Assembly: GCA_022578965.1 (NCBI GenBank)
Contig: MU400530.1
Location: forward strand, 372,001 to 436,000
DNA: 64,000 bases
Reading direction: 5' to 3'
Source of the DNA: Xylaria sp. FL1777
Taxonomy: Eukaryota; Ascomycota; Sordariomycetes; Xylariales; Xylariaceae
Below are positions 19,287-31,882 of the stretch, in pieces; the first letter of the stretch is position 1, and every line of letters starts with the position of its first letter. The translations under genes were made by a program, and so were the position numbers. The notes under the pieces are model-generated. The model did not search any database. It saw nothing but the letters and a program-made list of their open reading frames with translations, and was not told the DNA's origin.

Positions 19287-22200
19287 TTACGCTTTTTCTT
19301 GCACAATGTGATGACTTGAGAGATCCTTAATGACATAAATCTGATCAAACAGGACGACCTGGTCAAGAAACATCGACCAGATATTCATCCTCCGCTTGCT
19401 TAACCTCGCTCCAGCAACGTCCTTCGTAACCTCTACTCCTTGGCGTCTTAGGTCCTCGAGCTGCTTGAAAGCGAGCATTAGGCAGTTATACTCGTACTCG
19501 CCAATCGCATGCAATACCTTTTTCATGCTCTCGACGCTCTCATGGGACTCGAACTCGGGGAAGTTGACCGAATTGAGGGCGCCCTCTTCTTGGTCTCGCC
19601 GTATTGACCCAAGATCGTTGTAGATACGGGCCATGGTAGCAAGATGTCGGTACACATCAGCTGCCACGTATTTCTCGCCGGCAGTAGGGAAAACGTCCTT
19701 GCCACCGCCTCCGGCGGTAAGCGTGGAGCTGAGAAGACATCCGATGAAGGCCCAGGCGAAGGGGCCGGACACGTTGTCTGCGCCTGTGCTGCGTGCCCAG
19801 TTGTAGAAGGTGCTGGTAGATCCGGCCCCGGGCTGTTTGCTCTCCCGTTGCTGTCGGAACCGCGCGCTATCTTCTTCTTGTTGAACCTGGGCTAGGAGGT
19901 AAGTCCGGAGTTCGCGCTCGAGGGTCTTCCGATCCGCAGCGCTAGCTGTCTTGACTAAGGGGTTCTCAAAGCAATGCTTCTTGAATCCCTTTAGAGTAGC
20001 AAGGACTTCATCCTGGGGAGAGGCGCTACCATTGCCATTGCCATTGGTATGGCCGTTCTGTCCCTTAACACCATTGGTCACGGCTGGTTCCTCCTCGGGA
20101 AGCACTGAATAAATCAGTTGGCGGAGCTCAGATATACGGCCCTGGAAGGCGGGTGCTGCCGAAGCCTCCATGAACTCGTCAACCTGGTAGGTCAGCATAG
20201 AAAGAAGCGACACTTCGTATAGGAAAGAGGCAGACGCGAAGGTTCGGGCGCGGTTGTTGGGGCTCGTCCAGAAAAGAGGGATGAGATCGAAGTACTTGTC
20301 TTCCTGCATTCCCTGGCGCTGGAACACCTCCAGTCTACGCTTGATCAATAATGGTTTCAAGAGCACGGCCTCAATCATCGACCCTCGGAGCTCCCATTCG
20401 GGGTGCGCACTGAAGAGTTCGGCTTTTGAAAATAATTTGACGTGCTTGTCCATGCTCGAAGAGGATACATTCTGCCAAAGACTGGAACCAATCGTAGCAC
20501 CAATTGCAGGTGCAGAGCTAGCGGCCTTGAGCGCTCCTAGAACGTATGAATCGGTCAAGAGACGAGATGCGTAGCTAACTTTTTCAATCCAGATGTAGTT
20601 CAGAGGGCGCTCCTCGATAGACTTAATGAAGGCGATACCACGCTCAATCGCGTCATCGAGAGGTTGGCGGAGGTCATTGAAGAAACAGACACGTCGAGCT
20701 TCGCTCAAAATCAAAACGCCATAGGCAGTCTCTTCAATTGACTGGTTCCATGACCCGTTGGCCTGTTGGTCGAGTAAGGGTCTGAAACAAGCTTGGAATA
20801 GGGCAACAGCAAGCCTAGACTGCAGATCCTCGTCAAATACACCAGGTAGCTTGTTTTGCTCTATGAGATTCAAGATGTCCACGAAAGCCTCAACTATGAG
20901 GACAGACGGATAAAGATAACATGTGTTCTAGATACTCGAGTTAGTCATCCCATCACTATTCAGTCTCACGATATTATTACGTACCCATTTATCGACGATC
21001 TTGCCATCAGCTTTCCACCAGAAATCAACAAGGAACCTGGCTACTTTGTGGATTTGAGTAGAGAATAGAGATACGTCTGGCTGATGTAGAAGAGCCAGAA
21101 GTGCATTGCAGTTAGCGGTTGGGCTCGGATCTCGCTCTCCTGCGTAGGTGCGGAAATGGGTCTCTGCTTCAAACACCTCGATTAAACTATTCGGGCTAAC
21201 AGGTCGTCCAAGCATGTTTAATGAAGAAATAGTCTTGGCAGTGTCATCGACATCTGCCTCGAAGTAGGGAGCTATGATTGGTATTAGTAAAATTGCCTGT
21301 TAGACAGCACCATATTGTGAGTATCATACCAAACCCAAGGACACCCTTCTCAACCTCAAACGAGTGACTCATGATATCTAACATTTTAGTCAATTCGGGG
21401 CTTTCCAAGTCGGCCTGAGTGAAACCAGCTCTAAGTAAAGTTGACAACATCTGCAACTCAAGTTAGAATCCCGACTTCAACGCCTATTCAGAGACACTTA
21501 CCCAAGTGATTTCGAAATGTGTTGAAGGGAAGGCACTGGGGACAGCTCCGCTGCCACGACCAGCAGCATATTTAATGACGTGTCTGAGATATTCCTCAGA
21601 TTCGTCATCCCACTCTGAAGCGTGTAGCATGTATGCTGCCGTTGAAGAAGGTGAGCCCAACATAGAGCCATGCACTCTGTGGTGCTTCACCTTGTCGAAG
21701 TCCATCTTGCCTATGAAAGACTCTAATGAGTGAAGTGCTGTGAATCTCCGAGGCCCGTAAAGAAACTCTGGCCGAAAACGCGATAATTTGGCGTTGTTGA
21801 TCTTCATCAAGAGCTTTTTGGATTCAAACTCGAAAACTAGCGACGGGTCTTCCTTTTCCAGCTGTTCGAGCATGGCCGGGACAATGATCTCAAAACCGAC
21901 ATGTTCCGTGGTCGATACATCCCAAGCAGCCAATTGTGATCTTAAAGATGATGTTGCCTTTTCAATCCGGTTGGCAAGGTCCTGGGGGTTGTGTTGAAGT
22001 TGAAGCGGTTCCGCGTGGTGGCGCTTAAGAGCCAATAGAGGACCAGCTGTGTTCAAGATACCGTCGATTTGAGCACCCCAGCCAATCGTCCAGCCACCTT
22101 CTTCTGATTGAGTAGATAAGATGTACTCAAAGCACTCAGGGAAAAGCCATTGTTTCTGCCCATCTACAACCTTGGTCACCATTGCAATCCAGGCCGTATC

Positions 22201-22308
22201 ATAGGCAGCAACGCTCATTGCTCCTAAGCCATACTTCTCGGTATAGTTTTCTAGAGCAGTTCGGATCAACGATTTCGCATCGTTAGCAAGGCTGTTAGCG
22301 TCCCCCAT
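19287..22308 (-). CDS. cps/ks: bifunctional copalyl diphosphate/kaurene-type diterpene synthase (CPS/KS)
   Basis: Converts GGPP first to a copalyl diphosphate (class II, N-terminal half) and then to a tetra- or tricyclic diterpene hydrocarbon (class I, C-terminal half). Four exons on the minus strand, 22308-21502, 21450-21330, 21271-20985 and 20927-19287, give 951 residues, the usual length of fungal CPS/KS. All splice sites are canonical and the frame is intact. Motifs: AAYDTAW at about 34-40; class II acid motif DVDD at 316-319; class I metal motif DEFME at 655-659, the DExxE form used by fungal CPS/KS rather than DDxxD; second metal motif NDLGSIRRD at about 842-850, followed by the ALNSVNFPEF block. 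An Asn/Gly-rich insertion lies at about 690-716. The start is the first ATG; upstream there is only a TTG. Product stereochemistry (ent-kaurene, ent-pimaradiene or other) cannot be read from motifs. Confidence 0.95.
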
Positions 22309-30592: not shown

Positions 30593-31882
30593 CTATCCAG
30601 CCCAGGGTATCCGTGTCTTTTCCACAATAAACGAATTTGTAGTGAGGCGAGTTTGTAGCTCCCGAATTATGGTCTTATGAGCAGGCCAATTATGCTCGCT
30701 AACGATCTTGTCGAGAGTATTAAGCAGGCGCCCTAATCGTGCAACACGTGCTGTGAGGAGACTCTGCAGAACGAGATGCTCGTCATCGTCATCGAGCTGT
30801 CTGTTCCGTATGCTGATGCCGTATCCCCTGCTGCAGTTCTCGTCGACACCCTCGCCATCTCCGTATTTTCGCCGCTTCCTGTCTTCGGGGCCGTGGCCCT
30901 GATTTATGTCTATATCGGAGTCTCTCCATGAGGGGCTCTGGCATAGGTCCTCCAGTGTTGTCAGGATCCTCCGACACATAGATAATAGAAGCATAGTGTA
31001 GGCAGACTGCGCCGTGCACCTTCGGCACTCTAGAAGCTCCTCGCATTCGATCAATGCCTTTTTCTGATATCGTAACATATCGTCGGCGTTTCGCCATAGC
31101 TCATTTTGTCCCCAAACGGCTACTTCTATAGCCTCATATGTGCTAACGGCCTGTAAGAAACAGGAGCAGCTGGAATCAGATGTACCAGGAGTCGATGCTA
31201 CAGGTGATGTTTTGCTATTGGTGCTAAAGACAGCGTCTTCCCGCTCTGGGGTGCTATTCCACGGAGACTTGGTCTCATCAGGCGTAAAAGTGAATGGTTG
31301 TTGCCATGGCCTCATCGCATCCGAAGGATCCATATACTCTCCATCAGAAAGGAGTCTGGGAATGCTCTCGGGTATAAAGTCAGGCACTTCGAACCCGCCA
31401 AGGCTTAAGTCCAAGTCGTCTATTGTGCCGCTGTACGGCGTGTCCTGATTCGAGATAACGGTGATAAAGTCATCGTCGATAGTCGCATCAACGGGTGCTG
31501 ATGAAGGCCGTGATTGTGATTGAAATTGAGGAGTTTCGGGAGGGGTTGGTGCCGGGGCTCGCGCTCGTGCTTGCAATGGAGCTTGTGAATGTGTTTTCTT
31601 ATGACTATTTCCCCTTGGGGGACTGGGATAGCAACAGTTGATTTTTTTGGTCAGACATCGCTGGCAGCCATTCGGCTCGCCAGAGCATTTCAACTATTGA
31701 AGCAGTGTTAGCAAACTAGTTCACCTAAGTCATAACAGTCATTTAATTACCTTGCTTGTCCGGCAGTTCGTACAGGCAATTTTAGCCAATCTTCCCTCCC
31801 GCTTTCTGGAGAAGGGTGGTGTTGTTGTCTCAAAGGTATACGCCTCATCGGACAGACTGTTTTGTTTCAATGTGCAAAACAT
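30593..31882 (-). CDS. Zn2Cys6 transcription factor, AflR-like
   Basis: Nuclear DNA-binding activator, 410 residues, two exons on the minus strand: 31882-31751 and 31693-30593 (GTAATT donor, CTAACA branch region, CAATAG acceptor). The intron interrupts the zinc cluster, a common position. The cluster is perfect: C37-x2-C40-x6-C47-x6-C54-x2-C57-x6-C64. A Pro/Ser-rich linker follows, then an AflR-type C-terminal region beginning C-S-C-F-L and containing the helical YQKKALIECEELLECRRCTAQSA-type block. AflR-family proteins usually control the secondary-metabolite cluster they sit in, so this is the best candidate for regulator of the diterpene genes. It lies 2.9 kb from the GGPP synthase. Target sites are not proven. 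Confidence 0.88.

What the first reader, a model, noticed from the sequence alone, without database searches (positions are those of the whole stretch)
19287..31882. Compact four-gene diterpenoid cluster: CPS/KS, kaurene-oxidase-like P450, GGPP synthase, AflR-type regulator
Seen: all four frames are complete with canonical motifs (DVDD, DEFME, Cys461 haem loop, DDIQD/DDYKN, perfect Zn2Cys6). Known: fungal gibberellin clusters pair a pathway GGPP synthase, CPS/KS and a CYP503-type ent-kaurene oxidase. Inference: here the set is reduced to one P450 and lacks the desaturase and further P450s of gibberellin clusters, so the product is probably a simple oxidised ent-kaurane- or pimarane-type diterpenoid that has not been described for this strain.
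Basis: partly seen in the sequence, partly recalled or inferred. Interest (0 to 1): 0.8.

Follow-up and report, generated by a model that had tools for sequence, protein, structure and literature searches.

The report
Conserved four-gene Xylaria diterpenoid cluster
Four neighbouring genes in a Xylaria fungus look like a small assembly line that makes and oxidises a diterpene; the same genes recur together in related fungi, and the cyclase falls among fungal enzymes linked to pimarane-type compounds rather than with the gibberellin-type enzymes first suspected.

Summary
Four intact genes: CPS/KS (951 aa, 3 introns), P450 (517 aa, 4 introns, haem Cys461), GGPP synthase (392 aa, no intron), Zn2Cys6 regulator (410 aa, 1 intron). 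The regulator is identical to a protein of Xylaria sp. FL1777. Relatives keep the genes together: 18 of P450 rows P0121-P0154 (34 rows) and 14 of 53 regulator rows have the contig length of a CPS/KS row. In X. hypoxylon regulator and CPS/KS are numbered g1662 and g1665, room for two genes between.

The CPS/KS does not group with annotated Fusarium/Neonectria ent-kaurene synthases (AU p 5e-74). It forms a 100/100 clade with Apiospora proteins shaped like AsCPS, the copalyl-diphosphate half of a (-)-sandaracopimaradiene pathway (PMC10999977). The P450 is 37% identical to a Fusarium ent-kaurene oxidase and outside its clade.

Best reading: GGPP to normal-CPP to an (iso)pimaradiene, then P450 oxidation, perhaps at C-19, as in isopimaran-19-oic acids known from Xylaria. 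The product is inferred, not shown. A new member of a known kind.

The parts
19287..22308 (-). Bifunctional labdane-type diterpene cyclase (CPS/KS-like), exons 22308-21502, 21450-21330, 21271-20985, 20927-19287; 951 aa
   Evidence: Spliced model; DVDD316, DEFME655; homologues; trees; fold of its 95% identical orthologue P0001
22309..22931 (.). 623-bp divergent promoter between CPS/KS and P450; CGG/CCG-rich stretch 22677-22756 (10 triplets in 80 bp), a possible Zn2Cys6 binding platform (inference)
   Evidence: 0.09% of 80-bp positions in the window reach this count; looked for after the fact; the GGPPS upstream kilobase shows no such peak
22932..24726 (+). Cytochrome P450, exons 22932-23195, 23260-23388, 23448-23538, 23599-24249, 24308-24726; 517 aa
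   Evidence: haem ligand Cys461; orthologues on contigs that match CPS/KS rows
26488..27666 (-). Second GGPP synthase of the genome, single exon, 392 aa (start codon provisional; conserved part from about residue 97)
   Evidence: 53% identical to the other GGPPS-like gene of this genome, on contig C135
30593..31882 (-). Zn2Cys6 regulator, exons 31882-31751 and 31693-30593; 410 aa; identical to F5Y12DRAFT_743070 of Xylaria sp. FL1777
   Evidence: partner of CPS/KS in relatives

Best explanation
A four-gene biosynthetic cluster of Xylaria. The cluster GGPP synthase makes GGPP beside a second GGPPS of the genome; the class II half of the CPS/KS cyclises it to (normal) copalyl diphosphate; the class I half turns this into a tricyclic (iso)pimaradiene; the P450 oxidises that hydrocarbon, most likely at the C-4 methyl to the C-19 alcohol or acid; the Zn2Cys6 protein switches the set on. 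Shown here: intact genes, fold (on the orthologue), motifs, conserved grouping, phylogenetic place. Inferred: the stereochemistry of CPP, the skeleton, the site of oxidation, the regulation. C-16 oxidation and glycosylation, seen in Xylaria products, would need genes elsewhere.
Against: No product was measured. That the Apiospora proteins are AsCPS orthologues rests on genus, length and motif loss; AsCPS's own sequence was not at hand, and its authors say the stereochemistry of its CPP needs verification. Inside the 100/100 clade the Xylariaceae branch has only 69/52, so 'sister' is not firm. The nearest characterised bifunctional enzyme with sequence at hand is Phoma betae aphidicolan-16beta-ol synthase (P0065, 46%), in the same half of the tree; databases call P0001-P0003 'aphidicolan-16beta-ol synthase', and P0040 (84%) 'aphidicolan-16beta-ol synthase/syn-copalyl-diphosphate synthase'. 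No P450 row from Apiospora or Paraconiothyrium is among the 120 listed of 218, so the C-19 assignment is weak: myrocin makers may use another P450. Foldseek ranks Sat1646 44th, behind other class I synthases and at E 0.018; the fold does not fix the product. No shared promoter word of 10 bases or more was found. SonC shows no zinc-cluster match.
Confidence: 0.62

Rival explanations
1. The cyclase makes another labdane-related skeleton (aphidicolane or stemarane via syn-CPP, a cleistanthane, an abietane or a labdane alcohol), which the P450 oxidises.
For: Nearest characterised bifunctional enzyme with sequence here is aphidicolan-16beta-ol synthase P0065 (46%; same half of the tree); orthologues P0001-P0003 and P0040 bear that name, P0040 with syn-CPP. 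Fungal cyclases of this family make several skeletons (PMC10512213 passages).
Against: The Apiospora AsCPS-like proteins are far closer (66-70%, 100/100 clade) than P0065; diterpenes named in the Xylaria review passages are mostly isopimaranes. Names of the orthologues are automatic annotation as far as I can tell.
Confidence: 0.25
2. One reading: ent-CPP to ent-kaurene to ent-kaurenoic acid, a shortened gibberellin pathway.
For: Same enzyme classes as GA clusters; several relatives are annotated 'ent-kaurene synthase' or 'ent-kaurene oxidase-like'.
Against: AU test rejects grouping with annotated Fusarium/Neonectria ent-kaurene synthases (delta lnL 369, p 5e-74); listed Fusarium cyclases are 41-44% identical, apart from FOCG_18115 (56%), which is in the window's own wider clade; P450 37% identical and outside the Fusarium kaurene-oxidase clade; the word kaurane was not found in the Xylaria review.
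Confidence: 0.06
3. The regulator, and perhaps the GGPPS, are only neighbours; the working unit is the divergent CPS/KS-P450 pair.
For: The regulator lies 2.9 kb from the GGPPS and the GGPPS 1.8 kb from the P450; the GGPPS upstream kilobase has no unusual CGG/CCG density; the regulator is less conserved (27-46% in named genera outside Xylariales over most of its length). No homologue search was made for the GGPPS, so its partnership elsewhere is untested.
Confidence: 0.07

Closest known systems
AsCPS/AsPS and CiCPS-PS pimaradiene pathways (Arthrinium sacchari, Cordyceps indigotica; PMC10999977, main text read in two parts)
   Same: CPS/KS clusters with AsCPS-like proteins of Apiospora (100/100); own GGPPS and oxidative enzymes nearby; myrocin-type isopimaranes reported from both Arthrinium and Xylaria polymorpha
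   Different: Here one intact bifunctional enzyme, not a split pair; no Apiospora P450 among the 120 listed relatives of this P450; product not shown
SonA/SonC of Paraconiothyrium archidendri (database names only; no paper found)
   Same: SonA is 60% identical to the CPS/KS and SonC 43% over 61% of the regulator
   Different: No P450 of that genus among the 120 listed P450 rows; SonC lacks a zinc-cluster match; product not known to me
Aspergillus nidulans ent-pimara-8(14),15-diene (pbc) cluster (PMC3323652, passages)
   Same: GGPPS, bifunctional cyclase, one P450 and a Zn2Cys6 activator; DEFME class I motif
   Different: pbc also has HMG-CoA reductase, dehydrogenase, methyltransferase-like and EF1-gamma genes, none seen in the ORFs and gaps scanned here; ent series; DADD motif there. 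PbcA's sequence was not at hand
Fusarium gibberellin cluster
   Same: Same enzyme classes (GGPPS, CPS/KS, P450)
   Different: CPS/KS in another part of the tree, P450 not close to the kaurene oxidase, no desaturase and no second P450 in what was scanned
Phoma betae aphidicolan-16beta-ol synthase (P0065, filed under Neocamarosporium betae; synonymy recalled)
   Same: Same half of the cyclase tree; 46% identical; same motifs
   Different: Outside the 100/100 clade that holds Xylariaceae, Apiospora, SonA and others

Membership tests
Fungal bifunctional labdane-type diterpene cyclase | Class II DxDD and class I DExxE motifs in one protein | tested here: met
   DVDD316, DEFME655, NDLGSIRRD
Fungal bifunctional labdane-type diterpene cyclase | alpha-beta-gamma three-domain fold | tested here: met
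Fungal bifunctional labdane-type diterpene cyclase | Makes a diterpene from GGPP via CPP | not testable with these tools
   Needs expression
Normal-CPP/pimaradiene lineage (AsCPS type) | Clade with AsCPS-like proteins | tested here: met
   100/100 in the careful tree of 32 rows
Normal-CPP/pimaradiene lineage (AsCPS type) | P0031, P0032, P0036 are true AsCPS orthologues | tested here: inconclusive
   Genus, 696-730 aa, DVDD kept, DEFME lost; AsCPS sequence not available here
Normal-CPP/pimaradiene lineage (AsCPS type) | Product is a pimaradiene from normal-CPP | not testable with these tools
   Needs assay
Gibberellin/ent-kaurene cluster | CPS/KS groups with ent-kaurene synthases | tested here: not met
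   AU p 5e-74 against grouping with P0107, P0111, P0085, P0076, ent-kaurene synthases by annotation; rows chosen after the quick tree
Gibberellin/ent-kaurene cluster | CYP503 kaurene oxidase | tested here: not met
   37% identity to Fusarium ent-kaurene oxidase P0170 (by annotation), separate clade in a quick tree with some long outer branches; the 40% family rule is recalled
Gibberellin/ent-kaurene cluster | Desaturase and further P450s | tested here: not met
   None in the ORFs and gap frames scanned; 18085-19286, one frame of 11618-16649 and most gaps outside 11.6-35.6 kb not scanned
A. nidulans pbc-type cluster | GGPPS, cyclase, P450, Zn2Cys6 regulator together | tested here: met
A. nidulans pbc-type cluster | HMG-CoA reductase, SDR, methyltransferase-like, EF1-gamma genes | tested here: not met
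   No such family, with the gaps in coverage named above
AflR regulators (PF08493) | Zn2Cys6 motif | tested here: met
AflR regulators (PF08493) | PF08493 domain in this protein | tested here: not met
   No match at E<=5 for the identical protein P0241; A. versicolor relative P0276 has it at 29.5 bits
Pathway-specific GGPP synthase | Second GGPPS besides the housekeeping one | tested here: met
   Four PF00348 loci; by my reading of the sequences L001 is FPPS-like, L004 Coq1-like, L002 the other GGPPS, 53% identical

The most novel reading that the evidence does not exclude
This is the core cluster behind the isopimaran-19-oic acids of Xylaria, using a P450 family distinct from CYP503 that converged on C-19 oxidation, and its intact bifunctional cyclase is the closest living relative of the lineage whose class I half decayed to give the split AsCPS of Apiospora.
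Probability: 0.4. Interest if true: 0.62.

Novelty: new member of a known kind. Interest (0 to 1): 0.45.

Why it matters
Xylaria species are noted makers of isopimarane diterpenoids and glycosides, yet no gene cluster for them appeared among the rows listed by my paper searches (open-licence library only, and only the top rows of each search seen). This cluster is a specific candidate, widespread in the family and small enough to express whole. Its cyclase and Xylariaceae orthologues are the closest intact bifunctional relatives found here of AsCPS-like proteins, which bears on how fungi split a bifunctional cyclase in two, a question left open in PMC10999977.

Tried and rejected
Rejected: ent-kaurene/gibberellin kinship. 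Hidden cluster genes: read-through frames of 24727-26487, 27670-30592 and 31900-35625 (six frames each) and 11618-16649 (five of six frames) gave no Pfam match; 18085-19286 was not scanned. Of the 31 ORFs of 150 aa or more in the window, 29 were scanned, the cluster's as gene models; 17274-17750 and 48708-49199 were not, and genes of short exons elsewhere in the window would be missed. The flanking GT31-like gene (16650-18084) and the GH2 gene (35626-37956) are not counted as members; no test excluded the GT31-like gene. NCBIfam gave no name for the CPS/KS or the regulator. The PDB sequence search placed the P450 only as a general P450. Promoters: no shared word of 10 bases or more between the divergent promoter and the GGPPS upstream kilobase; the AflR-type site TCG-N5-CGA occurs 22 times in the window, once upstream of the GGPPS (28536) and never in the divergent promoter; the regulator's upstream kilobase has a lesser CGG/CCG peak (7 in 80 bp, 1.0% of positions). 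A pattern look at class II active-site residues was inconclusive: many rows did not match the pattern. Papers on SonA were sought and not found; a guess that 'son' stands for a named compound was dropped.

Choices behind counts: the trees used 51 and 31 of the 120 listed CPS/KS rows (435 found), and 36 of the 120 listed P450 rows (218 found), chosen by hand. The 34-row cut (P0121-P0154) is mine. The Mantel test used the 18 same-contig pairs plus the window; P450 rows without a CPS/KS row of equal contig length were left out. Contig matches were read by eye from organism and contig length; sharing a megabase contig is not adjacency. Periconia is discordant (CPS/KS 51%, P450 67%). The three protein searches went to CPS/KS, P450 and regulator; none was made for the GGPPS. 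The X. hypoxylon genome survey (PMC8403587, passages) says bifunctional diterpene cyclases are listed separately there; I did not read its tables, so the locus may be catalogued without a product.
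Full report

Is it a cluster? Yes, on the evidence of relatives. Locus numbers show near-adjacency: X. hypoxylon regulator g1662 and CPS/KS g1665; X. curta g5765 and g5768 on an 11.6-kb contig; X. multiplex g9402 and g9398; Conoideocrella 007450 (P450), 007451 (CPS/KS), 007452 (regulator); Diaporthe ilicicola 10006/10007 and Fusarium oxysporum 18115/18114 (CPS/KS and P450); Monosporascus 004905 (P450) and 004907 (regulator); Akanthomyces 011181 and 011183; Paraconiothyrium brasiliense 006298 and 006302 (CPS/KS and regulator). 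CPS/KS and P450 identities are correlated over 19 genomes (Mantel r 0.84, p 1e-4). Rows P0001-P0015, at 87-95% identity (14 named, one unnamed), show the cyclase widespread in Xylaria and close genera. The genome has four PF00348 loci; by sequence I read them as an FPPS-like, a Coq1-like and two GGPPS-like proteins, the cluster one 53% identical to the one on C135. No homologue search was made for the GGPPS. Scans of the gaps between and beside the genes found no further cluster gene (limits in Tried and rejected).

What does it make? Instead the enzyme falls in a 100/100 clade with three Apiospora proteins of 696-730 aa that keep DVDD and lack DEFME; within it the Xylariaceae branch has only 69/52. 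That is the shape described for AsCPS of Arthrinium sacchari, which with AsPS makes (-)-sandaracopimaradiene, thought to be the myrocin precursor; a bifunctional homologue, CiCPS-PS, makes the same (PMC10999977, main text). The clade around them, also 100/100, holds SonA of Paraconiothyrium; the regulator in turn matches SonC (43% over 61%). Paraconiothyrium and Xylaria both yield isopimarane glycosides (PMC9609704 passages). Xylaria passages name 16-hydroxyisopimar-7-en-19-oic acid and its mannosides and glucosides, xylarcurcosides, nor-isopimaranes, and myrocin E (PMC10971283 and PMC12365674 passages). Against this, the nearest characterised bifunctional enzyme with sequence at hand is aphidicolan-16beta-ol synthase (46%), and some orthologues carry its name (P0001-P0003; P0040 with syn-CPP).

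The P450 is 37% identical to a Fusarium 'ent-kaurene oxidase' (P0170) and falls in a separate 16-row clade (SH-aLRT 100; quick tree, with long branches among the outer rows). It therefore is not CYP503 by the recalled 40% rule, though it may do the same chemistry: the C-19 carboxyl is a common oxidation in the Xylaria isopimaranes seen, and the cluster has a single P450. This step is inference. Against it, no Apiospora or Paraconiothyrium P450 is among the 120 rows listed.

How it probably works. GGPPS supplies GGPP; the DVDD motif protonates GGPP to give copalyl diphosphate, probably of the normal series; DEFME and NDLGS bind Mg for ionisation and ring C closure to an (iso)pimaradiene; the P450 oxidises it, perhaps to a 19-oic acid; the regulator may act through the divergent promoter, whose CGG/CCG-rich 80 bp (22677-22756) ranks in the top 0.09% of window positions (a post hoc look; the GGPPS upstream kilobase shows no such peak, the regulator's a lesser one). 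My odds: cluster 0.95, diterpene cyclase 0.95, normal-CPP pimarane-type about 0.7, C-19 oxidation about 0.5.

Known or new? The kind is known. The cluster was not found described among the rows listed by the searches made (open-licence papers only), and SonA/SonC show that a relative has been named by someone. The value lies in a small, conserved and testable candidate for a well-known compound family and in an intact close relative of the split AsCPS lineage.

Other diterpene loci of this genome: C58 has a 33-35% identical cyclase beside two P450s; C63 a cyclase matching only residues 271-947 beside a 29% identical regulator; C214 a distant match (25-34% in two pieces). None of the other three PF00348 loci lies on these contigs.

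Noticed in passing
L012/L013 (G000:C63:224975-229178): A cyclase with class I and beta domains (DVDD kept) but no N-terminal gamma domain found, next to a paralogue of the cluster regulator (29% identical over 375 residues); either a truncated relic or an alpha-beta enzyme of AsPS shape.
   Followed up: partly
L014/L015 (G000:C58:36675-44697): Second diterpene locus: cyclase over the whole length (33-35% identical) beside two P450s related to the window's P450; an aldo-keto reductase fragment at C58:46515-47105.
   Followed up: partly
L016/L017 (G000:C214:54134-62629): Third, distant cyclase (25-34% identical pieces) with an FAD-binding monooxygenase-like gene about 5 kb away.
   Followed up: partly
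window 16650-18084 (+): Fringe-like (GT31) glycosyltransferase with a weak PAN-like C-terminal part, just downstream of CPS/KS; Xylaria isopimaranes are often glycosides, but no evidence ties this gene to the cluster.
   Followed up: partly
window 5124-6300 (-): HMG-box protein with a tandem repeat of about 66 bp, 4.7 copies (5342-5640), within its coding region; further tandem arrays at 6537-6883 and 7508-7795.
   Followed up: partly
window 50258-50794 (+): HTH_32 (homeodomain-like) match below the Pfam cut-off, possibly a transposase remnant.
   Followed up: no
genome of Xylaria sp. FL1777: The literature reports a lovastatin-type cluster without lovF in this strain, predicted to give monacolin J (PMC10734572, passages).
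   Followed up: no
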